Below are positions 11,966 through 24,974 of a stretch of 64,000 nucleotides of DNA, piece by piece. Positions within the stretch are counted from its first letter, which is position 1; every line of letters begins with the position of its first letter. The translations under genes and the position numbers were made by a program. The notes beneath the pieces were generated by a model. The model ran no database searches and was not told the origin of the DNA. It saw only the letters and a list, made by a program, of their open reading frames with translations. The DNA comes from Microthyrium microscopicum (lineage: Eukaryota > Ascomycota > Dothideomycetes > Microthyriales > Microthyriaceae), in assembly GCA_010405405.1 (NCBI GenBank), contig MU004245.1, positions 499,256-563,255 of the forward strand, in the 5' to 3' direction.

Positions 11966-13161
11966 TCACTTCGCACTTGCTCGTCTTGCTTTACCCGGTC
12001 GCTTTCTTCCGCCGGTGAATGGCTTACTCTTCATACCCTTTGCGGAAAAGTCGCGCATATCTGAAGTACTCTGGGCATCGCCACTCTTGGCATGTCGTTT
12101 CTTTCCGCCAAAACCATACTTCTCGTTCTTCTTTTGGCGCTTGTGATTCGTCTTTCCTTGATCTTTATCGCCTGATCTACTTGGCTTCTTCGACTCGGTA
12201 TCTAATTGAACATCGAACATGTCGTTCTCGTTCTCGCGCTCTGGGAGAGCATTTGATCGCTCTAAACACATCGATTAGTCTCTATGTCTTCAACTCTGAG
12301 GATTGGGTACTCACTGCGCTTCATGCTGCCGATCTTCTCCATCGTTTCTCTCTTCTGCTTGTCCCGCTCTTGCAGCTTCGCCACCTGTACCGCCTTTCCG
12401 AATTTCTTCAAATCGCGCTGTCTCCGTGCCTCTGCTGCACTCTTCTTGTTCGCCGCATCCTCCACCAGTCGTGCTCGCACACGGCCCATGTGCTCTTCAC
12501 TCTTCACCATCTCTGCAAAGTAGTCCGCCGGCCGCGCAAATGGTGAGCCTTCTTTTGTCAGTGCCGCGCGTGCTGCTAGCACTGCTGCCTGGCTTTGTGC
12601 GTAGAAAGCGAGTTCGCGTGTGAGATCGTCCTCCTCATCTTTGATTTCGATGGGTGCTGCGGATGTGATGGTCTGGTGGGCGGAGAAGGGTAGCGAGGTG
12701 AGTGGAAGAGCGATGCGCGCGAGAGAGGCGGTGAGGGCGGCGTGATTGTTGATAGTAAGGCGTTGATAGGGAACTACGTCGCCGCGGTCGTCTGAGGAGA
12801 GGGAAGCAATGTCGGAGTAGGGGATATCTTCTGCTTCTTCATCTTCCTCATCCTCATCGTCTTGTTCGGCTCCACCATTGGTGTGAGCAGCACCGTTTTG
12901 TTTAGCATTCAGGCTCACTCCATTGGCGTCTGCAGGATCTTCTGGCTCGTCGGCTTCAGAGTCAAAATCATTCTTCTCGTCTGCTGAGGTATCTGTGTCG
13001 TCGATGCGGGAAATGTCCAGCTCGTCCAGCTGCGGGGCGTCTTCGTTCTTTGAAGCGGCAGTTCTTTTGCGCTTTGCGGCTTGTTTTCGTAGCTTTTTCT
13101 GTTTTTCTAGCTTGTGATCGACACCTTTGTTATTTTCGAGAGCCGCCTTGAGTTTTCCCAT
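11966..13161 (-). CDS. EBP2: rRNA-processing protein EBP2
   Basis: Two exons, 13161-12315 and 12261-11966, give 380 aa; the 53-nt intron has a GTGAGT donor. The N-terminus is a lysine-rich coiled coil (KLEKQKKLRKQAAKRKR), followed by a long acidic stretch (DDEDEEDEEAED). Residues 130-300 form the conserved EBP2 core (RELAFYAQSQAAVLAAR, RPADYFAEMVKSEEHM, KKFGKAVQ...). The C-terminus is the basic tail with KYGFGGKKRHAKS typical of the family. EBP2 is a nucleolar assembly factor needed for 27S pre-rRNA processing and 60S subunit formation. It is slightly shorter than the yeast protein. Longer frames extend upstream of 13161, but MGKLKAALE is the family start. It is divergent from HSBP1. Confidence 0.93.
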
Positions 13162-13399
13162 GTTTACGGTGTTGTGGTGGTTGTGAAGTAATTTGCGATG
13201 GCTGGCGCAAAAAAGTTCGAAGTTGCTAATATTTTTTTCGATCCCCACGTTTTGGAGAAGCGCGCGCTTAACATCACCCTTGCTTGATCTATCGTGCATC
13301 TTAAGCGCCTCGCCTTCATTGACCTTCTTACAACCTCCTGAGTTTCTGCATTTCCCCTTCTCACAATAGATTAAACACGATAACAAACGGTCGATCAGT
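13162..13399. promoter_or_regulatory. Shared EBP2/HSBP1 divergent promoter
   Basis: Only 238 bp separate the EBP2 start (minus) and the HSBP1 start (plus), so the two genes probably share a compact bidirectional promoter. A pyrimidine-rich stretch lies before the HSBP1 start. I see no named operator. Confidence 0.5.
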
Positions 13400-13788
13400 A
13401 TGAGTGCCCTAGACACCGAGAAGAAAACAAAAGGGGCTAGTGTAGAGGTAGAAACACTCGAACTATCCGACTTTCGCAGGACGCTTACATATCTCACAGG
13501 CCGACGGACAAGCAGAGCTATCCGAAGCCATTGAGACGCTTCTCAAGACTGTGGGCGACAAATTCCAGAACATGAGCAAAGATATCTTGACTCAAAGTAT
13601 GTGATCATATCATTCAAAGCTATCCATAGCTACTACTACATGTTCCGGAAACCATTACCCTCCATGATATACATTGAGATCATATGCTGACGTTATTTTT
13701 TGTCGTAGTGGATGCCATGGCTAAACGTCTTGACGAGCTCGAAGCCCAGATAAAATCAAACTCCACTTCCGATTCAACCAACCAATAG
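13400..13788 (+). CDS. Heat shock factor-binding protein 1 homologue
   Basis: A small spliced gene with exons 13400-13441 (or to 13447), 13500-13596 and 13709-13788, giving 72 or 74 aa. Exons 2 and 3 encode the entire HSBP1 coiled coil: ELSEAIETLLKTVGDKFQNM, then SKDILTQMDAMAKRLDELE. This heptad pattern and length are diagnostic of the HSBP1 family, a small trimeric coiled-coil protein that in animals binds the HSF1 trimerisation region. In fungi the role is less clear. The exon 1 boundary is uncertain because GTAGAG and GTAGAA donors, 6 nt apart, both keep the frame. Its stop lies 5 bp from the convergent neighbour's stop. Confidence 0.88.
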
Positions 13789-13793
13789 ACCGA

Positions 13794-14223
13794 TCACCCC
13801 ATCATCATGAATAACACCATCAATGCCATAATTATCCCGGCGCTGAGTGCCAAGGCCGAGTGTATTTGTCTGTTTGACGCAGCGGAGATCATGGGCGCAG
13901 GAAGAACAGCAGGCAATGCAGTGATCTGAGGAGGATTGAGTGGAATCGGTGTGGCGTGTGCCGGGAACGTTTGTGTGAAGGTGACCGGAAGAAAGGTTGT
14001 TATGGTACCGAGAGTTGTTGGAAACCAGTATGTTGTTACGCTTGGATATTGAGTTACCGGTGTAGAATGTGTGGTTGTAACCGCGACTCCCTTTGCTCTA
14101 TACACAAGTCAGATTGTTGAGCTTGTTCATGTCACAAGTTAGCTCCTGAAAGACCTACGCGAATGGCTCTGGGGTCTTTGTAACGAGTGGAACGAAGAGT
14201 AGGACGACTGATAGACCTGTCAT
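13794..14223 (-). CDS. Small Thr/Pro-rich secreted or GPI-anchored protein
   Basis: Exons 14223-14159 and 14097-13794 give 122 aa with a 61-nt intron. The N-terminus MTGLSVVLLFVPLV is a short hydrophobic signal-like segment. The middle is rich in Thr, Pro and Val (VTTTHSTPVTQYPSVTTYWF), as in O-glycosylated cell-wall proteins. The C-terminus is a small-residue site (SAASN) followed by a hydrophobic tail (ALALSAGIIMALMVLFMMMG) that fits a GPI-attachment signal or a membrane anchor. No family recognised. The gene is nearly end-to-end with HSBP1. Confidence 0.65.
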
Positions 14224-14829
14224 GATGTATGCGTAAACGAACGAGTGTAATGGTTGATATTGTATGATATGCGGTAGAATTATTGCTTGATCTCAATGTC
14301 GCAGTCAAAAAAGCATGTAGTCAAAGATTGTTCGGAATGGTTGCTGGATTACTGGCATGGTTTTCATCAGAGAACCATCATCAGCCCACGGGTTGACAAA
14401 GGTGCCAGGCGCAGTCAACGTAAAGGAAGCAATATCGCAGGTCTGCAAGCAAGAGCAGCATATGTTTGTGTATCGACTGCAACACTGCACGGTTGCTACT
14501 CCTTGTTAATATCGAGCTCCAGGAATTTGAATGAAAAAAGGATGTTTTTCATCAATGTTCTTTTCGAGTACTCAAAACCACTATCGATGTGGTCTCTGTC
14601 CTGGAAAGCGTAAGTATAAGATTACGGTTAGAGCTAATACGTTTAAAAAGACCACATGCTCTTTTTCGGAGAAGATGTGAAACACCTATCGCATTCGACG
14701 GGCTCCATGGCGCCCGATCAGAAACGCATGTTATGGTCGTCATCAAGTGCGATGGGAAATCCGATCTTTGGCTTCGCCGCATGTCGTCAAGAAATGCAAT
14801 TTGGCACGGGGAATCTTACCTTCCGACAT
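14224..14829. other. Intergenic region left of the BTB cluster
   Basis: About 600 bp between the small secreted-protein gene's promoter and the 3' end of the first BTB gene. A 108-codon plus-strand frame has no protein character. Nothing else seen. Confidence 0.4.
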
Positions 14830-15834
14830 TCAATCGTCATGGGTTTCTGGAGTAAGACAACCCTCCGACTCACTGCCTACCGTCACATCTTCATCTCCAT
14901 CCTCATGACTCTCGTCCGTGGGACTTTTGTATGAAAGGAGCTCACGTCTCATTGACTCCGCCATGGCTTCAACACCAACTTTGCACTGGGTGCAGTAATA
15001 AGCAGATCCCACTATTGATCCGTACTCTGCTAAATGCTTATCGCCGTCGATCTTGTCCAGATCGACGAAGCTATACCAACGGCAGTTCCAGCAGGCAGCC
15101 TTTATGTTTGCACGAGTCGGTATAGCAGGCATATCTGATAGGAGCATCGCTGTGAAAATTCGAGATCCGAAATCCATTGTGTCCTTGTGGCAAACCATTC
15201 TCAAGAAACATTTCGACACACTTAATACCGGCAGCAGCCTGATGCATTCTTCATCAAGTAGCTTGAATAGCAGGCTATGGGTTCCTCTGTCAAACTGAGA
15301 GCATAAGTGCTTGATGCAATCCACGAATTTCTGGATCTGCGGGGGGTCGAATTCGTTGGCGGTACTTGGATAATCCCATCCGGGTAGTAGGGCTGCAAAT
15401 AGGCAGACAAGTTCTTCCAAGATGGCTTTGACTAGTCCATCTGCTTCAAAAAAGTGTGCAATTCGATACTGTTCGAGAGCAGCAATGAAGTGATTGTCGT
15501 ATCCCCCAAGCTGGCCTATTTTTGGTAGAGCTGAGCCTCCGTACATCCAGCGCAAAGCAAAGTCGATTAGCAGCGGATTTTCCTTTTCGAATGTCAGCTC
15601 GGGCGCTCTTGCTGGCTAGTATAGATGAGTTAGCACGATATACCTAGCGTTTGCGTTGGATAGACTTACAGCTTGTGGGTAATCGTAAGAGCAAAATATT
15701 CTGAACCAGTTTGACTGACAGCAAACGATCACTTTATGGATTTTCCAAGTTCTTTCTCCGCAGGCGACCGTGAGGTCGCTGAATTCTACGTCGTCGAATC
15801 TCTTGCTAATACTGGACAGAGTCTGAGAATCCAT
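14830..15834 (-). CDS. BTB/POZ protein with CWxC-CxxC tail, paralogue 1
   Basis: Exons 15834-15670 and 15615-14830 give 316 aa. The BTB core opens at about residue 18 (FSDLTVACGERTWKIHKVIV). Second-half BTB and BACK-like helices follow (ALRWMYGG, YRIAHFFEADGLVKAILEEL). The tail has C230-W-x-C233 and C263-x2-C266, which I read as a small zinc-binding unit, and an acidic C-terminus (DESHEDGDEDVTVGSESEG). BTB proteins dimerise and many are Cul3 substrate adaptors. It is the most diverged of the five local paralogues, but the intron sits at the same place as in the others. Earlier in-frame ATGs at 15885 and 15942 exist; 15834 matches the family start. Confidence 0.8.
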
Positions 15835-16568
15835 TCTCACAGCTTCTGTATTTTGTATGCCGGTAAAAAGATTTGGCCAACTCATGCAAGCTATTAGTAC
15901 TACTAAAGCTGAGTCAATCGGTCTGACAGCTCGAGCTTTCAAACCTGTGGCTGATGAAGGGAGCAGATAAAAGCCTCTTCAGGTGCTATGTACAAGTAGG
16001 TTTGTAAATTCACTCGAACTGTTGGTTGCTTACGTGTCAGGATCCTCAGAAATCCTTGGTACCGGTGCCTAGCAAGGCGCCATGGTGTACCGTTACCATT
16101 GAAGCTACAGCTATCGTAGCCTTGAAACGAATCACATTAACGCTTCAATGCGCAGAGTATGATCATTTTTCAAAGGACAGAATTAGACCACTGGATTCTG
16201 TGACAACAATTGCTACTCCTGCAGGCGCAATTACGAGCACCCGACCCGGTCTCTGCACCTTTTTTCTAGCATTTGATGCACAGGTTGAAATACCTAAAAG
16301 GGCAAGCGGTGCACACAGTCCAAGAACACTTGGGGCAGCTGCGATGTGAGCTCTTAATCAGTCGGTGGACCGTAAATTGCTCGTCAGGCAACTGCGGAGG
16401 GACCTTCTATCGCACCATATATTCTCCAGTCTTGTGCACACGCTCGACGCCCCTCCTCTACTTTCACCAAACAACAAATTCGGCATCATTATCCTGAAGC
16501 GTCCCAATATCAGAGCACCAAAATTGGCCTACTGCTCACCGCTTTTCGAAGTCGAACCAAGGTCAGAC
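15835..16568. promoter_or_regulatory. Divergent promoter between BTB paralogues 1 and 2
   Basis: About 730 bp between head-to-head BTB genes. The frame of paralogue 2 stays open upstream to 16365, but the extra residues do not look like the family, so this is probably 5' UTR and promoter sequence. Confidence 0.45.
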
Positions 16569-17624
16569 ATGGCAACTCGTCGGAATGAACAAGTCAGAAC
16601 ATACAGCGAAAATCTGGTCAACGTTTTTGACGATAGGACATTCAGTGACGTAAGAGTGACTTGTGGGGCAAAGTTGTGGCATCTTCATCGTGTCTTGCTC
16701 AGCGCTCACTCGCCGTGGTTCGCAGCAGCCTGTGGTGGCAGTTTCAAGGTATTCCCCATGAATTATAAAACGATCAATGAGGCCTCTCTGATAGATCGAA
16801 AACAGGAATCTCACACTGGCGAAATCGAAATCCATCAGCAGAACCCGGCCATAGTCGAGGTCGTGCTTCACACAATATACGCTGGCCCTTCAACCTGGAT
16901 TCCATGTGCAAGACTGGCAATGAACAGAAGCGATAATGACGGCTTGACTTTCTTGATCGATCTCTACCGCACCGCGAACTATTTTCAGGTGCATTGGCTA
17001 GAAAAGGAAATCGTGGCTAAATTCTCTGACCTCTTTCAAACTGCCTTTGTGGCCGCCGGAACTACGAAACCTGGTTGTGACGTAGTGTACCCTTCTCTCT
17101 CCCTCGTCAAGACCGACCATACAACAGTTGTGGATGGAACAGACGGGCCTTTCGTCGTTCACTTTGTAGAGGCTGTGAAGTACGCTTGCTCCGTGTTCGG
17201 CACTGACTCAAACAACGAACTGCTGGTATGCCTTCGTGATCTTTGCGTGGCCTCCCTTGAGATTTTGATATCTTCGAGATGTTGGGCAGTCATGGGAAGC
17301 GCCGAAAAAACATCAATCTTCGTCAATCGGGTTCTTCTAGCTTCCAGCTGGGGCTTGAAGCAACACAATACGGTTCGAAAATTCTCGTACAAAGGCACCT
17401 GCTGGATATGTGAGGAAACTTTAGAGTGGAATCCATCTCGACGTGATGTGTCTCAGGCACAAGTGCCTAAAGGCACTCACTGTGACGAATGCTGGGAATT
17501 GGCACGATCTTGGTTCTTCGATCCGCCATCCAATGCAGTTGTCACATTTCAGGAAGGAAACAACAAGGTCATGCACAATGAGAACATGGACAATGCGAAG
17601 GACAGAGATATACTTCCACATTGA
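16569..17624 (+). CDS. BTB/POZ protein with CWxC-CxxC tail, paralogue 2
   Basis: Exons 16569-16748 and 16806-17624 give 332 aa. The 57-nt intron contains no stop and keeps the frame, so an unspliced reading is also open. I removed it because the border (GTATTC...AACAG) sits exactly where the paralogues have their intron and the removed residues have no counterpart. The BTB core is FSDVRVTCGAKLWHLHRVLL followed by SAHSPWFAAACGG. The middle has LYRTANYFQVHWLEKEI and HFVEAVKYACSVFG. The tail has C259-W-x-C262 and C286-x2-C289. It is the only plus-strand member of the cluster. The function is inferred as a Cul3-type adaptor or other dimeric scaffold. Confidence 0.82.
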   Translation: MATRRNEQVRTYSENLVNVFDDRTFSDVRVTCGAKLWHLHRVLLSAHSPWFAAACGGSFKVFPMNYKTINEASLIDRKQESHTGEIEIHQQNPAIVEVVLHTIYAGPSTWIPCARLAMNRSDNDGLTFLIDLYRTANYFQVHWLEKEIVAKFSDLFQTAFVAAGTTKPGCDVVYPSLSLVKTDHTTVVDGTDGPFVVHFVEAVKYACSVFGTDSNNELLVCLRDLCVASLEILISSRCWAVMGSAEKTSIFVNRVLLASSWGLKQHNTVRKFSYKGTCWICEETLEWNPSRRDVSQAQVPKGTHCDECWELARSWFFDPPSNAVVTFQEGNNKVMHNENMDNAKDRDILPH

Positions 17625-18231
17625 GCCAGCAAATCGTTCTCTCAATCAAGGAATTGCTGCAAGCACTAAGGAATTCCGGGATTGTAAAGTGTAGATACCC
17701 ACCTGTGTTAGGTACAATCGGCACAGAGTGAAACCTCATGGTATGGCAGGCTTTCATGTGAATGCATCTTTCAAACAAAGCTTTGTAAATCTGTGAGCTG
17801 GCTATCTTGCAACTTATGAGATAAAACATAATGGGTCGTCGCCCCAGCGAGCTTTCCCTAGGAAGCGATAATTGTATAGAGTATTCAAAGAGCTTCTTAT
17901 TACATGATATAATATCAATCTATAGTGGACTAGTGGCTCTGCCACCATTTCCACTCCTGTCAATTTGCCTCCACGCCAGCTAAGGTACTGGCATTGCAAC
18001 GCGCAAATAATGGACTTGCTTATCCTGTTTGCCGTCGATTGCGTCCTAGGCCATCTCTAGAGTTGCATTATTCACGATGTGTAACTTCGCACTTCAGGGG
18101 CAAAGGAAAATGCATTTCATTTTCAGGGGCACGCGATGAGGCGTCAAGTTCTGTTGCTCCTAGAAAAAACAGAGCACAAGCTACAGGCTTAGCGAAGGCT
18201 TCATATCGCTTTTGAGAGAATGACGTGTCGC
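17625..18231. other. Intergenic, convergent BTB paralogues 2 and 3
   Basis: About 600 bp between the 3' ends of a plus-strand and a minus-strand BTB gene. Short frames only; probably 3' UTRs. Nothing else seen. Confidence 0.4.
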
Positions 18232-19158
18232 CTATGAATGAAGCCACTCTCGCAAGATTGGCCAGCATGTGTTGCAGTAGTAGCGGGCTGGATCGGTCGG
18301 TGTGCGAGCTGATATCTCTGTCAAGACATGATCACAGCCCCAACAGCCTTCGGGTAGCTCCAGTATCTCCAAATCTTGACAGGCGTATGTCTCTCCACAG
18401 AAGTGTAGAGAAAAGACACGGCTGGTAAAGAGGGCTGTCTCTGCATCTTGACACAACTTCTTCCAGCACTTCGACACCATGAGAATTGGCAATTCGGGAG
18501 CGCAAAAATATAACAGTCTCTCAAATCGACGAATTACGCTGTCAGCACCAAATATGCCAATTGCATATCGAATACCCTCGACAAAATCTGCAACTTCTTT
18601 GGCATCACGAGGTCCGCCTTGATCTTGCAAGTTGGGTACAACGTACTCCAAACGCGACGCTCCAGTAGAGTACAACGGGTTGAGGTTTTGTTCTGCATAT
18701 TCAAGCATTACCTCTTCGATATAGCTTAGTAACCATTCGATCTGGAAGAAGTCTGCGCATTTGTAAAGATCTACCCAGATCGTGTACGGGTTGGAGATTC
18801 CCTCGGTAGCCAGGTTTTCGAATAAGTCGCGGAAGAGTCGATGGCTGTCATGCGCCTTATACATCATCTTGAGCACGACTTCAGCGATTCGAGGATCTTG
18901 TTCCTGAATAATGAACAATCCGGTATGGGCTTCCTGCGCTGATGTTAGTACCGGGGAAATATTCGTTTTGTGTTGTATAGATACCTTAAAGTCTTGACTA
19001 CACGCAGCCTCAAACACTGGCGAATGTGCGCTGAGAATGACTCGATGTAAGCGCCACGATTTGTCTCCGCATTTTACTGTCAAGTCGCTGAATTTCTCGG
19101 TGTCGAAGGTTGGACCGAGAGAGTGATCGAATCCGCTAGGCCGCTTTCTGAAAGGCAT
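18232..19158 (-). CDS. BTB/POZ protein with CWxC-CxxC tail, paralogue 3
   Basis: Exons 19158-18985 and 18933-18232 give 291 aa; the 51-nt intron has a clear branch point (TACTAAC) and no stop in frame. The BTB core is FSDLTVKCGDKSWRLHRVIL, then SAHSPVFEAACSQDFK, with the intron immediately after. The second exon starts EAHTGLFIIQEQDPRIAEVV and continues with LYKCADFFQIEWL, DFVEGIRYAIGIFGAD and MVSKCWKKLCQDAETALF. The tail has C255-W-G-C258 and C278-x2-C281, followed by WPILREWL. It is closest to paralogues 4 and 5. Probably a homodimeric adaptor; partner and substrate unknown. Confidence 0.85.
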   Translation of the reverse strand: MPFRKRPSGFDHSLGPTFDTEKFSDLTVKCGDKSWRLHRVILSAHSPVFEAACSQDFKVSIQHKTNISPVLTSAQEAHTGLFIIQEQDPRIAEVVLKMMYKAHDSHRLFRDLFENLATEGISNPYTIWVDLYKCADFFQIEWLLSYIEEVMLEYAEQNLNPLYSTGASRLEYVVPNLQDQGGPRDAKEVADFVEGIRYAIGIFGADSVIRRFERLLYFCAPELPILMVSKCWKKLCQDAETALFTSRVFSLHFCGETYACQDLEILELPEGCWGCDHVLTEISARTPTDPARYYCNTCWPILREWLHS

Positions 19159-20127
19159 GTGGGCGTTGTTTCAGAGTTGGATATAGTTGAATAGGATTGC
19201 GCTTGGGGGAAGGGAGATGCGAAGTGCTGGAGTTGTGGTGTGAGCTAAAGAATACAAGAGGGGACAGCGTCAAGAGAATTTTATATGGAGGGACTCTTGA
19301 GATCAAAGTAACAAATTGATAGTGAAAGGACTGGAGTGGAGACAAGAAATAGCTCCATCATTATGAGGGTGGAGTTCACTACCTCGAATCGCGAAGTGAA
19401 AGATGTTATATAGGCGCTTATGAAAGCATGAGCAGGCGATGTCTCAAATTTACCGCCTCGTGTTGCAGAGCGAAAGCTGCTTTATAGAGGACTTGCGGCA
19501 CAAGACACGATACACGAGAGGAAAGAGGAAAGAGATCGGATTCACGAAGCCTTCATTATAAGATAGAAAATTCAAGAGGGTTGAAGAAAGCAGTCCATAT
19601 CTTACTCCCATTAGCGGGCTTTGCCAGCTGCCGCGCTGCTACACTCTAACATATGCTCCTTTGTGTCTGAGAAGAAAGCGTGATCCGTTCAGCATAGCGG
19701 AAACAAAGAGGTTGCTGCTCGAAAGTAATGATGGCAAATGACTTGCTGCTACCTATGGCAATAGTTTATCGTCGGACTTGTCTACCAGTAGTTGACAGTC
19801 AACTTTGGTGTTGTCAATCTTAATATAAATGCAAAATCAATCGCAAAATCAGCGGGATATCGAATGTTATCAACTAAATCAATAGATAGCACAGTACCTG
19901 CTCAGTTCTAAAGGCAGAATCACGGATAGTAGGTTCGAGTCACTAAATACTTGAATTGGAGTATCAATAGTTTGTAGCACAGACGTATTCAATTTTTTTG
20001 ACAATCCTGGCACGTTAAACCATGGAAGCAGCTCATAGGCTGTTCGAAGCGATTCTCCGTTATCTTCTCCCACATTAACTTGATATTGCAGGGTCCATTC
20101 CGCTGCCAACATCGTGGCATCGATGCC
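19159..20127. other. Intergenic between BTB paralogues 3 and 4
   Basis: About 970 bp holding the promoter of paralogue 3. A 77-codon minus-strand frame (20112-19879) begins 15 nt after the stop of paralogue 4 but has no recognisable motif. A pentad similar to the upstream element of paralogues 4 and 5 (CCTCGAA) lies near 19383. Confidence 0.4.
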
Positions 20128-21116
20128 TTAGTGTCCATCATCCATTGAAAGATTGCTCATGTCGTCAGAAACCTCGTCCGTAGCAATTTCAGCAGGTGCT
20201 GGAGCGGCCAACCATTGCTGAATGATGGGCAGACAGAAGGAACAATAACGTTGTACGATCTTTGAATCTTGGCCCACTCTGAAATCTGGCGCCTGCTGCA
20301 CCGCAAGCTGGCAGCTACAACCCCAGCACGCGTGCATGATTTGGAGTTGCTTGGATAACAAGGGCGTTGTGCTGCCCCAGAAGTATAGTGAGATCACGCG
20401 AGTGGTGAATAAGTGTGCTTCGACATCTTTCTGGAGATCATTCCAGCATCTTGACACCATCAGATATGGAAGATGAATCGCACAGATACCCGCGAGACTC
20501 TCGAGAAGATCTGTCTTCGTGTCTGCGCCATATACATTGATAGCGTGTTTCACACCCTCAACAAAGGACTGAACAGTGCGACCCTCACAAGGTCCTTCTG
20601 GAGCGGTTAAAGAGGGTAAAATGTGCTTCCAAGAGTAATCCTGGGGACTGAGTGCGGCCTCTGCATAGGCCTGGAGATCGTCGATGATTCCCTTCCCCAT
20701 CCATCCAATTTGGAAGTAGTTAGCGCATTTATGCACCTCAATCCATGTGATGAAAGGGTTGCGAGCAGGATGTAGATTGAGTAGCATATCAACAAGGATT
20801 CGGAGGTCGCTGGGTCCATGATACATGATCTTGAGCACACACTCGACAACTTCCGGGGCTTTGTCTTTGATGACGACTTTTTGGTTCTTGGCTTCCTAAC
20901 ATAAATGTTAGCTTATGATGCAGGGGGAATAAAGCCATTCAAACTTACCTCAAAATTGCCTGTGCATAGTGCTTTGAAGTATGGAGAGTGGATTTTCAAG
21001 GTGGACCGATGTAAGTGCCAGGTCTTGGGACCACATTCTACCACAAAGTCGCTGAATGTATTGTCCTCGAACAACTGGCCTAAAGCATCCTGGAATTGCT
21101 GGGAGGCGGTGGCCAT
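20128..21116 (-). CDS. BTB/POZ protein with CWxC-CxxC tail, paralogue 4
   Basis: Exons 21116-20949 and 20895-20128 give 311 aa with a 53-nt intron (GTAAGT donor) at the cluster's conserved position after the BTB core. The core reads FSDFVVECGPKTWHLHRSTL then KIHSPYFKALCTGNFE. Exon 2 has VVECVLKIMYHGPSD, VHKCANYFQIGWMGKGIIDD, SFVEGVKHAINVYGAD and LMVSRCWNDLQKDVEAHLF. The tail is C246-W-G-C249 and C274-x2-C277, then PIIQQWL and an acidic end (DEVSDDMSNLSMDDGH). It is similar enough to paralogue 5 to suggest a recent local duplication, and the two share a 20-bp upstream element. Confidence 0.86.
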
Positions 21117-22019
21117 TTCGCGCAGTGATCCGGAGGAGAATCTAGGCGGAAGATGACCGACTGGAAGACCCGTAGAATACGGCAGCTAGATGAAAGCAGA
21201 GCAGCCAGCAGGTTGCTGTTTGCTGCGCAATGAAGAGGTTGTTAAACAGCAAGCGGAAAGATGAAGATGTGATTTAAGCTGGCTAATCGGATGCGTAAGC
21301 AAAGACAAGGTTGGTAGTTTTGGACTGGTATATATGATCGGTGGAGGAGAGGAAGGGAACAAGTTTTGGATTTAAAGCAAGGTATTGGAGTGAAGGACTA
21401 CAGACTAGTGTGGTGTTATAGGTGAATATCAGCGAGATTTAACCGCTTCACCTCGCGAAATAGTTAAGGCGGCTTTTGATATCTCGAATGATCACCTCAT
21501 ACCGAATTCGGTAACAGTGCCGCTGAACCGTGGGAAGCAGGACATTCAGTAAACCGCCGACCTATCATGCTATCCGCAACACCGCTACTGGTAAGATGAG
21601 ACTTTGATGCCGTCGTAAAATCATCTAAACGGCAGTGATGGGGCTTTATTGTAATGGATGTCGTATCTTGGCGCTATAATCCAGTGCTGCGCCCATACAG
21701 TCTACAAACACCTGATAACCGAGAGGCTAGTTACAGTTTTACTATAGCCTGGCTATGAAACGAAGGAAAATGAGAGCTTGATTAACTCTAGATTTGAGAC
21801 ATAGTATCGACCTGATTGCGATCATTCTTCCCAGTAATTCGTGAACCTGATCTCAGGTTCAAATTTGACGTTGCACAAGGTACAGTGAAGTCGCCATCAG
21901 TAATTGATGTAAGCCTAGAAGAGACTTGAAAAACGCGACGTAAGACGTCGTAATCGCTGGTAAACCACTCGAGTACTTGTTGTCAACCCTCTCTACTAGT
22001 CCGTGATCCCATTCCAGCA
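21117..22019. promoter_or_regulatory. Promoter region of BTB paralogue 4
   Basis: About 900 bp between paralogue 4 and the 3' end of paralogue 5, with no credible coding frame. It contains the 20-bp element described separately at 21478-21497. Confidence 0.45.
21478..21497 (+). promoter_or_regulatory. Shared BTB upstream element, copy A
   Basis: GATATCTCGAATGATCACCT, 362 bp upstream of the paralogue 4 start. It matches 23309-23328 at 18 of 20 positions, both differences being C/T. It could be a regulatory site or a relic of duplicated promoter DNA. Confidence 0.45.
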
Positions 22020-22991
22020 TTACACGGTCAGATTCGCCAAAGAAGAAGAAATATCTTTGGCTGAAGCTCCACCAAGCCATTGCCGAAGAATCGGCTGACA
22101 AGTGTTGCAGAAAAGATAACGAATCTTAACATCTTCATCTCTTCTCTTCGAACTGAAGAACTGATATGCTTCTGAAGAACGTCCACCATCGCAACCCCAA
22201 CAACGGTCATAAATTGACAGAGTCTTTTTGGAGAGTTGATTGGGGGTGCGCCCCCACAGATGTTGAGTCATTACCAAATTGGCCCATGCGAATGTCTCCT
22301 TATCACTACTGAATAGTTGCCAGCACCGAGAAGTCATCAGGTATGGAAGGTGAAGGACGCATGAGTCCACAATTCTCGCAAACAACTCAACCTGTAAGTC
22401 CGGGTTGAGACTTTGAAAGGCATATTGTATAGCCTCGACGAAGTGATAAATGGTGGGCCCATCGGAGGGTCCTCCAGACGATCGCAGAGATGGTAGTATA
22501 GACTTCCAACACAGACCGCCTGCAACTGATTGTGGAGCAAGTTTAGCATCAACGAAGCTTGTAAAGTGGCGCAAGATCTCCTTTTCTATCCAGGGGACTT
22601 GGAAGTAGTTGGCACGTTGGTAGAATCCTACCCAGAGTATGAATGGGTTTGCGTTAGGTCTTGACTTTAGGACAATTTCGAACTGAGGCAGGATGTCGTT
22701 TGGACCGCGGTACAGAACTTTTAAGATAGCTCCGACAATTTCTGGGTCCTGGTCTTGAAGAACAATCTCGTTGTTGATATCTTCCTACTCCAGATTAGCT
22801 TACGGTTGGGTTGATACTGTGAGAAGAAATACCTTCATTTTGCTCCGACATGTCGCATTGAAATATGCTGACTGTGGAGTAAGGATGGAACGATGAAGTC
22901 GCCAGCTTTTGGGGCCACACTTTACGGTGACGTCGCTATATGTGCCGTTGTCGAACAGAGGACCAAATGCGTGTTCAAAAGAGTCCGCCAT
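22020..22991 (-). CDS. BTB/POZ protein with CWxC-CxxC tail, paralogue 5
   Basis: Exons 22991-22833 and 22784-22020 give 307 aa. The BTB core reads YSDVTVKCGPKSWRLHRSIL then TPQSAYFNATCRSKMK, followed by the conserved phase-0 intron (48 nt). Exon 2 begins EDINNEIVLQDQDPEIVGAI and has VLYRGPND, FYQRANYFQVPWIEKEIL, HFVEAIQYAFQSL and LPYLMTSRCWQLFSSDKETF. The tail is C248-W-G-C251 and C279-x2-C282, then PILRQWL. Same family as its four neighbours; a dimerising adaptor role is inferred. Confidence 0.86.
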
Positions 22992-24047
22992 CTTGAGGTA
23001 CTAAAGGAAAAGTCGAAGGGAATAGCTGTGTTGGCGGGAATGGCTTGATCAGCTAAGAGTTGGGAAGTAGGGTGGGAGGCAGCAGTAAAAACCCCGAAGA
23101 GGAATTCACTACGTCAATTGCTGATGAAGAGCTTTTGCTTTGGATGACAGCTATATACTGCGAGACGGCGGTTGATGGAAACTTGAAGGGTGTACGTTTT
23201 GAAGGAAGGTGGTGTGATAAAAAAGTACAAACTTGTGTGGAGGCAACGGTTGTAGACCAGCAAGGCTTAGCTGTTTCAAAGCACCTCAATCACTAGGACA
23301 TAGCGTCTGATACCTCGAACGATCACCTGGTATAGTATCTGTTTATAGCAACCCATAGATCAAAAGAGACAAGCCAGGCGCTGGTAATATATACCGCGAG
23401 ACCCGCCACCACGCTTCTCGTGTAAACTGGATGTTCCCTTTCATCGTAACACTAAGCAGACAGACAATGGAGTGGCGGCAGAGTAGATAATGATGGCTCC
23501 ATCCTGATCAGTGACTGGTGATGTCCACAGAAGCCAGCGCCATGAACATATTGAACTTAACGAGCGGAGTTCATTACCACTTCTTTCAAGATGAAAAGAG
23601 TACATGGCTGATAGATTTTATAGATCTAGAAATTAGAAATGGCTACGTGACTACAACCATCCTCTCTTGTAAGCATGGTATCACTGCCAAATATCTCCAC
23701 AGATAATGATCCTAAAGCCGTAGCACACATGACAATTGATACAGAAAACTTATCAGATCTAAGGTAAAAGTACGACTGGGTTAAAACATGAATCGTAACA
23801 TGATTGTATTTGAGAGTAGAGTAACGATTACTCATATAGTCATCTTGACTTGCCATTTTCAAAGAACATATTTGTCAATCAGCAACGTAGAATCATGCGT
23901 CATATCGCATTTGCTATAATTATATCAAAGAACGAATACCGTGAACAAACAATGCCCACATGCCCTTGGAATCCAGAAAACCATCCAGCAACCCCGTCCA
24001 GCTTGTGGAAACTTCACGCGCCCAATCATACCACAATCTCTATCGCA
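22992..24047. other. Intergenic, promoter of BTB paralogue 5
   Basis: About 1.06 kb between paralogue 5 and the 3' end of the isoaspartate methyltransferase gene. It contains the second copy of the shared upstream element (23309-23328). Remaining frames are short and unconvincing. Confidence 0.4.
23309..23328 (+). promoter_or_regulatory. Shared BTB upstream element, copy B
   Basis: GATACCTCGAACGATCACCT, 318 bp upstream of the paralogue 5 start and in the same relative orientation as copy A at 21478. Confidence 0.45.
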
Positions 24048-24974
24048 TCATTCCCCTTGGCCACTAGACAGGGGTAACGGTGAGACAGGAGCATCAGTCA
24101 ACGGCACATATTGAACCCCAAACATCTTTTTTCTCTCCACCTGTCCATCCTCATCCTTGTCGACAATCCAAATATTCTGCTCGCCATTCTTCTCCTCTAT
24201 TGGAATGAACATCCTCCCACCATTCTTTAGCTGCTCCACCAACTCCTCTGGCCAACCCTTTGCCTAGAATATGTGAGCTTATTACTAGTAAAACTACGAA
24301 AAGACCAAATAATCCTGCTGTCCAGAACGTTTTATGCTAGCCATCGAGCACGATGGGAGATGTGAATGCCATTGTTCCACCAAACATCGTCAAGAAAATG
24401 TGAGTTTGAATGAGGGATTCTTACCGCAGCACCAACATGTATCGCATCATACCCATCACCATGCCTATCAGCCTCCCTGAACCCCTCCCGTCCATCCCGA
24501 CAAATAAACCTCACTCGTTTACTGCGCATTAGTTCTCTTCCAGCGTCACTTTTCCCCATGTTCAATTTCGCCTCGCGGGCGAGTTCCTCAATGTGCTCAA
24601 TGCCAATGACTTCGCCGTCCGGCTCAACGAGATTCGCAAGTACATGTGTTAGATAGCCCGATCCAGATCCAACGTCCAGAACGCGCCCATTGGGCTTGAG
24701 GACGGATAGCAGGGCTTCACAGGCGTGGGCATGCATGTGTGGAGCGGAGATTGTTGCGTGGTGGCCGACGTATTGGGGGGTGTCGGCGTATGGTTCCCGA
24801 GGAGCGTAATGGCCTCTGTCAACCTGCAAGGCTCGTCAGCAAGGAGGAAGAGGAAGGGCAGGAGAAGGGTACGTTGAGCATGGCATCTTTGACGCGGATG
24901 CTTTTGATGAGACCGTTGGAAAAGAGGTTTTCGATGAGGGCGGTGTTGGTGGCGCCGGATGATCGCCAGGCCAT
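24048..24974 (-). CDS. Protein-L-isoaspartate O-methyltransferase
   Basis: Exons 24974-24873, 24823-24425 and 24263-24048 give 238 aa, the usual PIMT length. The start MAWRSSGATNTALIENL is the standard eukaryotic PIMT N-terminus, and ATCACCATGG is a good start context. The pre-SAM motif DRGHYAPREPYADTP, SAM motif I (VLDVGSGSGYLTHVLA, residues about 80-95), post-I EVIGIEHIEEL, and the C-terminal KGWPEELVEQLKNGGRMFIP are all present. The enzyme transfers a methyl group from SAM to isoaspartyl residues in damaged proteins and so starts their repair, in the cytosol. The frame is open upstream to an ATG at 25172 (66 more residues), so a longer, possibly organelle-targeted form cannot be excluded. 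The second intron is 161 nt. Confidence 0.93.

What the first reader, a model, noticed from the sequence alone, without database searches (positions are those of the whole stretch)
14830..22991. Five-gene BTB cluster with a conserved C-terminal CWxC...CxxC unit
Five BTB paralogues lie within 8.2 kb. All have one phase-0 intron directly after the BTB core, the same central motifs (YFQ.xW, FVE.x.xYA, SRCW/SKCW) and a tail of pattern C-W-x-C-x(19-29)-C-x2-C, followed in four of them by a W/P-x-L-x-x-W segment. The four cysteines are invariant while the sequence between them is free, which suggests a small zinc-binding unit. BTB domains and their Cul3 adaptor role are established; I do not know this tail as a named domain. 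The cluster may be a lineage-specific, fast-evolving set of ubiquitin-ligase adaptors.
Basis: partly seen in the sequence, partly recalled or inferred. Interest (0 to 1): 0.75.

Follow-up and report, generated by a model that had tools for sequence, protein, structure and literature searches.

The report
Fungal BTB gene cluster, four-cysteine tail
A fungus carries a cluster of strongly diverged BTB genes, probably ubiquitin-ligase adaptors, whose last segment keeps only four cysteines unchanged, which points to a small metal-binding unit that the searched domain catalogues do not name.

Summary
The cluster is real: five intact two-exon BTB genes at 14830-22991, between EBP2 and PCMT frames. 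Database hits name the organism Microthyrium microscopicum, Dothideomycetes. All five carry C-x2-C-x(19-29)-C-x2-C near the C-terminus. The subfamily is larger: two more genes lie about 20 kb left of B1 and two on another contig, all with the tail. Across nine tails the only invariant columns are the four cysteines. No Pfam or NCBIfam model matched the tail over its cut-off. The rest is predicted as BTB plus BACK-like helices, nearest to Cul3 adaptors such as SPOP and KBTBD4, and the genome has a Cul3. Best reading: Cul3 substrate receptors with a C4 zinc-knuckle tail, an expansion of a known kind. Zinc and Cul3 binding are inferred; occurrence outside this species is undecided because the homologue searches were weak.

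The parts
14830..15834 (-). B1: BTB gene, exon 1 15834-15670, intron 15669-15616, exon 2 15615-14830, 316 aa (database name BT63DRAFT_430412); divergent member without phi-x-E and without the central motifs
   Evidence: splice model; P0002, 316 aa, named and matching this place on the genome; motif table
16569..17624 (+). B2: BTB gene, exon 1 16569-16748, intron 16749-16805, exon 2 16806-17624, 332 aa
   Evidence: Pfam BTB
18232..19158 (-). B3: BTB gene, exon 1 19158-18985, intron 18984-18934, exon 2 18933-18232, 291 aa
   Evidence: Pfam BTB
20128..21116 (-). B4: BTB gene, exon 1 21116-20949, intron 20948-20896, exon 2 20895-20128, 311 aa
   Evidence: Pfam BTB
22020..22991 (-). B5: BTB gene, exon 1 22991-22833, intron 22832-22785, exon 2 22784-22020, 307 aa (database name BT63DRAFT_461317, 100% identical over 307 aa)
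   Evidence: P0001
14833..15273 (-). B1: last 147 codons, 60 residues before the first tail cysteine to the C-terminus (CWNC-x29-CTQC)
17220..17621 (+). B2: last 134 codons, including the tail (CWIC-x23-CDEC)
18235..18525 (-). B3: last 97 codons, including the tail (CWGC-x19-CNTC); the segment folded alone
20131..20508 (-). B4: last 126 codons, including the tail (CWGC-x24-CSFC)
22023..22382 (-). B5: last 120 codons, including the tail (CWGC-x27-CNTC)

Best explanation
The genes are diverged members of a fungal BTB-BACK subfamily that works as substrate receptors of Cul3-RING ubiquitin ligases; B2-B5 are probably local duplicates. The N-terminal BTB domain dimerises and docks on Cul3 through the alpha3/phi-x-E region, helped by the following helices; the C-terminal C4 unit binds one zinc ion, forming a knuckle (first C-x2-C) clamped to the start of a terminal helix (second C-x2-C). 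The clamp holds the end of the protein against the helical domain, while the unconstrained 19-29-residue loop between the pairs varies and probably contacts the substrate. Shown: gene structures, BTB identity, invariant cysteines, presence of Cul3. Inferred from sequence and predicted fold: BACK-like domain, Cul3 docking, zinc binding. Conjecture: the loop as the substrate-reading part; B1 may have lost Cul3 docking.
Confidence: 0.55

Rival explanations
1. The proteins bind zinc through the tail but are not Cul3 receptors: like BTB transcription or scaffold proteins they use BTB for self-association, and the tail binds nucleic acid or another protein.
Against: Those rows cover only the BTB; rows that go beyond it are BTB-BACK proteins (A55, KEAP1, KBTBD2, NPR1). 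Seven of nine keep phi-x-E, aligned to a Cul3 adaptor. Pfam finds no zinc-finger array.
Confidence: 0.24
2. The tail is not a zinc site: the cysteines form disulfides or merely pack, and their conservation reflects common descent of few genes.
For: Tail confidence is low to middling and no known zinc domain or fold is matched significantly.
Against: The tails are 16-41% identical to the first row, yet the four cysteines are the only invariant columns of nine; end branches are long (median 1.32 changes per column), so recency does not explain it; paired C-x2-C with a knuckle-and-helix layout is a usual zinc pattern (recalled).
Confidence: 0.14
3. The genes are an ordinary fungal BTB family whose cysteine tail is already widespread in Dothideomycetes, so nothing here is specific to this lineage or locus. 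This is compatible with the best explanation and changes the novelty only.
For: Other BTB genes of the same genome carry variant tails: CPHC-x14-C-x4-C on contig C4, CSAC-x13-C-x-C with the same phi-x|E intron on C9, CAVC...CVVC on C14. The homologue tool needs shared exact words, and even own-genome members were missed in some searches (P0002 and P0005 absent).
Against: Three searches of the 5.8-billion-protein set found no relative outside this species at E 0.001; the two run up to E 10 added one BTB protein of unnamed origin at E 0.17.
Confidence: 0.5

Closest known systems
SPOP and other MATH-BTB Cul3 receptors
   Same: among the closest BTB chains by sequence and the first by Foldseek; phi-x-E was first identified in SPOP-Cul3 (PMC3616122, passages); MATH-BTB has a lineage-specific expansion in C. 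elegans (PMC1257465, passages)
   Different: no MATH domain matched; BTB is at the N-terminus; a four-cysteine tail is present instead
BTB-BACK-Kelch proteins (KBTBD4, KBTBD2, KLHL11, KLHL3) and vaccinia A55
   Same: BTB followed by BACK-like helices in the predicted fold; phi-x-E aligned to KBTBD4
   Different: no Kelch repeats matched; total length 291-332 aa; short C4 tail after the helices; Pfam BACK not matched
BTB-zinc finger (BTB-ZF) proteins
   Same: BTB with C-terminal cysteines that may bind zinc; top VIA-align rows, over the BTB only
   Different: BTB-ZF proteins have C2H2 finger arrays (recalled); here a single C4 unit with a variable loop and no zinc-finger match over a Pfam cut-off
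Neurospora crassa BTB1 / Cul3-BTB ligases
   Same: filamentous-ascomycete BTB protein shown to bind Cul3 (PMC2996332, passages)
   Different: that paper reports eight conserved BTB proteins in N. crassa; this genome gives 38 exon-level BTB matches, which is not a gene count; whether BTB1 has a cysteine tail was not examined
Pfam zf_Tbcl (probable treble clef)
   Same: two of nine tails match weakly, best E 0.02; knuckle-and-helix layout
   Different: not significant; not filed as a member

Membership tests
BTB/POZ domain (PF00651) | profile match over the curated cut-off | tested here: met
   5 of 5 genes, 30-52 bits against a cut-off of 20.5
BTB-BACK proteins | BACK helical domain after BTB | tested here: inconclusive
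Cul3 substrate receptors (B2-B5) | phi-x-E motif in the BTB alpha3/beta4 region | tested here: met
   4 of 4 (FKE, FKE, FEE, MKE), also C9a, C9b and U1; position aligned to KBTBD4; motif described in PMC3616122 (passages)
Cul3 substrate receptors (B1) | phi-x-E motif in the BTB alpha3/beta4 region | tested here: not met
   B1 reads PQA at this place, and U2 outside the window AAN; B1 is not filed as a Cul3 receptor
Cul3 substrate receptors | a Cul3 partner in the same genome | tested here: met
   four cullin matches; the one on C4 is closest to Cullin-3 in both pieces
Cul3 substrate receptors | physical binding to Cul3 and ubiquitination of a substrate | not testable with these tools
   needs biochemistry
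C4 zinc-binding tail | four invariant cysteines in two C-x2-C pairs | tested here: met
   9 of 9 tails, the only invariant columns
C4 zinc-binding tail | four sulphurs at zinc distance | tested here: inconclusive
   tail-only model shows a knuckle bridge and a helix start at the right places, low confidence in the full-length model, no coordinates returned
C4 zinc-binding tail | bound zinc | not testable with these tools
   needs metal analysis
Any named zinc domain in Pfam or NCBIfam | match over the curated cut-off | tested here: not met
   no tail match over a cut-off; best zf_Tbcl E 0.02 in 2 of 9 and DUF1272 E 0.042 in 1 of 9; NCBIfam none in 8 of 8
Any solved zinc fold | significant structural match of the tail | tested here: inconclusive

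The most novel reading that the evidence does not exclude
A class of Cul3 receptors, expanded in this fungal lineage, in which a zinc-clamped, hypervariable C-terminal loop is the substrate-reading element, so that new ligase specificities arise by changing a 19-29-residue loop between fixed cysteines, a compact analogue of the MATH or Kelch module.
Probability: 0.15. Interest if true: 0.65.

Novelty: new variant of a known kind. Interest (0 to 1): 0.36.

Why it matters
The passages read give few BTB proteins in the fungi they cover: eight conserved ones in Neurospora, five and six in the two yeasts. A subfamily with a fixed four-cysteine clamp and a free loop would give a simple handle on how fungal Cul3 ligases acquire targets, and the tail is a candidate for a new domain entry. 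If the tail proves widespread in Dothideomycetes, the finding is useful annotation rather than a surprise.

Tried and rejected
Intron 'after the BTB core': rejected; it lies within the domain. 'CWxC invariant': rejected; CVEC and CQSC in U1 and U2. Plasmid collection search with the cluster DNA: no match, uninformative for a fungus. Three homologue searches (A1, A2, U1): only proteins of the same species at E 0.001; candidates 3605, 5434 and 815; P0004 (E 0.17) is a BTB protein of unnamed origin and was not pursued. The search misses even known own-genome members (P0002 and P0005 absent), so absence elsewhere is not claimed. Tail profile against PDB sequences up to E 10: 17 sequences, none significant; 15 of 17 bear names I know as zinc proteins (L33, S26, ZMYM5, LIM, ClpE, ZNF183-like; recalled), but a profile dominated by cysteines would tend to do this anyway, and I ran no control. 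Tail fold search: the best rows are the MSL1-MSL2 complex at E 1.2, chance level. Tree of the nine plus one outgroup BTB: B2-B5 group 91/96 and B3-B5 98/94, but B1 is unplaced and branches are long, so local duplication is supported only for B2-B5 (C9a entered it with its out-of-frame end). C9a's second intron: my first choice put the tail out of frame; 13 other GT-AG choices keep it in frame and I did not choose one, so C9a is counted by its tail frame only. Repeat search over 14000-24000: no tandem repeats, and one direct-repeat family of 65 nt that lies in exon 1 of B1, B3, B4 and B5. Papers: no title or abstract start in the listings of the nine answered searches was about a four-cysteine tail in fungal BTB proteins; two searches returned no paper. 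This is not proof of absence from print. PMC6652019 was searched for BTB and POZ and holds no relevant passage; of PMC11074293 I saw passages.

Full report
What is there. The window is C16:499256-563255 of a 36.9-Mb, 20-contig genome. Database proteins identical to B5 (P0001) and matching B1, U2 and U1 (P0002, P0003, P0005) are named Microthyrium microscopicum, an ascomycete of the Dothideomycetes. Five BTB genes fill 14830-22991 exactly. Each has one 48-57-nt GT-AG intron in phase 0 and an intact frame of 291-332 residues; pairwise identity is 23-39%. On either side lie an EBP2 frame (12262-13542) and a PCMT frame (24332-24835).

Corrections. The intron is inside the BTB domain: the Pfam match spans it in 5 of 5, and the junction is at x|E of the phi-x-E motif in B2-B5 (FK|E, FK|E, FE|E, MK|E); B1 has QA|P, within a residue of the same place. 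A phase-0 junction at the same place is found in C9a, C9b, U1 and U2, and a GT-AG junction FK|E in a further BTB gene on C9 near 683 kb, while two BTB genes in which I could align the place, C15 and C14, run through it without an intron. So the intron marks a group wider than the five genes. B1 lacks the central motifs and phi-x-E.

The subfamily beyond the window. Host-genome searches with B4 and B1 and reading of the fetched stretches gave four more members: U1 (C16:492569-491537) and U2 (C16:494820-493708), about 22 and 19 kb left of B1, and C9a and C9b, starting at C9:2122421 and C9:2124192. B1-B5, C9b, U1 and U2 carry C-x2-C-x(19-29)-C-x2-C near the C-terminus; C9a carries it in a frame whose joining intron is unresolved. 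In the nine-tail alignment the invariant columns are the four cysteines and nothing else. The Trp of CWxC is in seven of nine. Mean identity among the five is 34.2% in the BTB, 30.2% in the middle, 22.8% in the tail and 10.6% between the pairs. The chance of such a cysteine pattern in shuffled versions is 0.06-1.7% per protein.

Other BTB tails in the genome. Pfam BTB has 38 exon-level matches, a lower bound. Eleven frames in the BTB loci that I read carry C-x-Y-H-x-H near the C-terminus, six of them with a further Cys soon after; nine of the eleven lie in two arrays on C8. Others have CPHC-x14-C-x4-C (C4), CSAC-x13-C-x-C (C9:683) and CAVC...CVVC plus CAYHEH (C14). Cysteine or histidine tails are therefore a recurring feature of BTB proteins in this fungus.

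Cul3. Four cullin matches are in the genome. The C4 one is closest to Cullin-3 (E 6e-116), and its N-terminal piece aligns with solved Cullin-3 including SFEELYR-AY; by my reading this holds the helix-H2 residues F54, Y58 and Y62 that contact BTB proteins (residues named in PMC3616122, passages; their placement in this stretch is mine). Phi-x-E is kept in seven of nine members, aligned to LKE in KBTBD4. In Neurospora eight BTB proteins were tested and one, BTB1, is reported to bind Cul3 in the passages seen (PMC2996332). Binding here is inferred, not shown.

What is known. No Pfam or NCBIfam model matched the tail over its cut-off. BTB families with lineage-specific expansions are well described: MATH-BTB in worm, BTB-NPH3 in plant, BTB-ZF and BTB-BACK-Kelch in vertebrates (PMC1257465, passages). 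This cluster probably works like those and is best filed as a BTB subfamily with an unnamed C4 tail. It is not filed under any named zinc domain, and B1 is not filed as a Cul3 receptor.

Verdict. Real, well delimited, mostly as described, with corrections to the intron place, to B1 and to the size of the subfamily. A new variant of a known kind; interest moderate, because its distribution outside this species is unknown and the searches here were too weak to decide it.

Noticed in passing
window 42001-64000: AT-rich block, 20-32% GC per 2 kb, with a strong repeat-induced point mutation signature: TpA/ApT 1.68 and (CpA+TpG)/(ApC+GpT) 0.22, against 0.68 and 1.32 for 1-40000.
   Followed up: partly
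L056, L058, L059, L060 (C8:2072-2099 kb and 2318-2328 kb), L067, L053: A second, larger set of clustered BTB-locus genes carries C-x-Y-H-x-H near the C-terminus; eleven such frames were read, six with a further Cys soon after. Over its cut-offs Pfam names only the BTB, in five of six scanned; the sixth (L060:2698-3672) matched nothing. A possible second zinc-type tail.
   Followed up: partly
L006:1003-1836 (-) (same gene as in L053), contig C14 near 988 kb: One BTB protein carries both a multi-cysteine stretch (CAVC...CVVC...CCLC) and the CAYHEH tail.
   Followed up: no
window 16569-21116: Proteins identical to B2, B3 and B4 did not appear among homologue hits although B1 and B5 did; they may be missing or modelled differently in public annotation. 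The search is lossy, so this is only a hint.
   Followed up: no
L048, C16:493.7-494.8 kb, left of the window: The public protein for U2 is a 167-aa piece (P0003) that lacks the BTB part modelled here upstream.
   Followed up: partly
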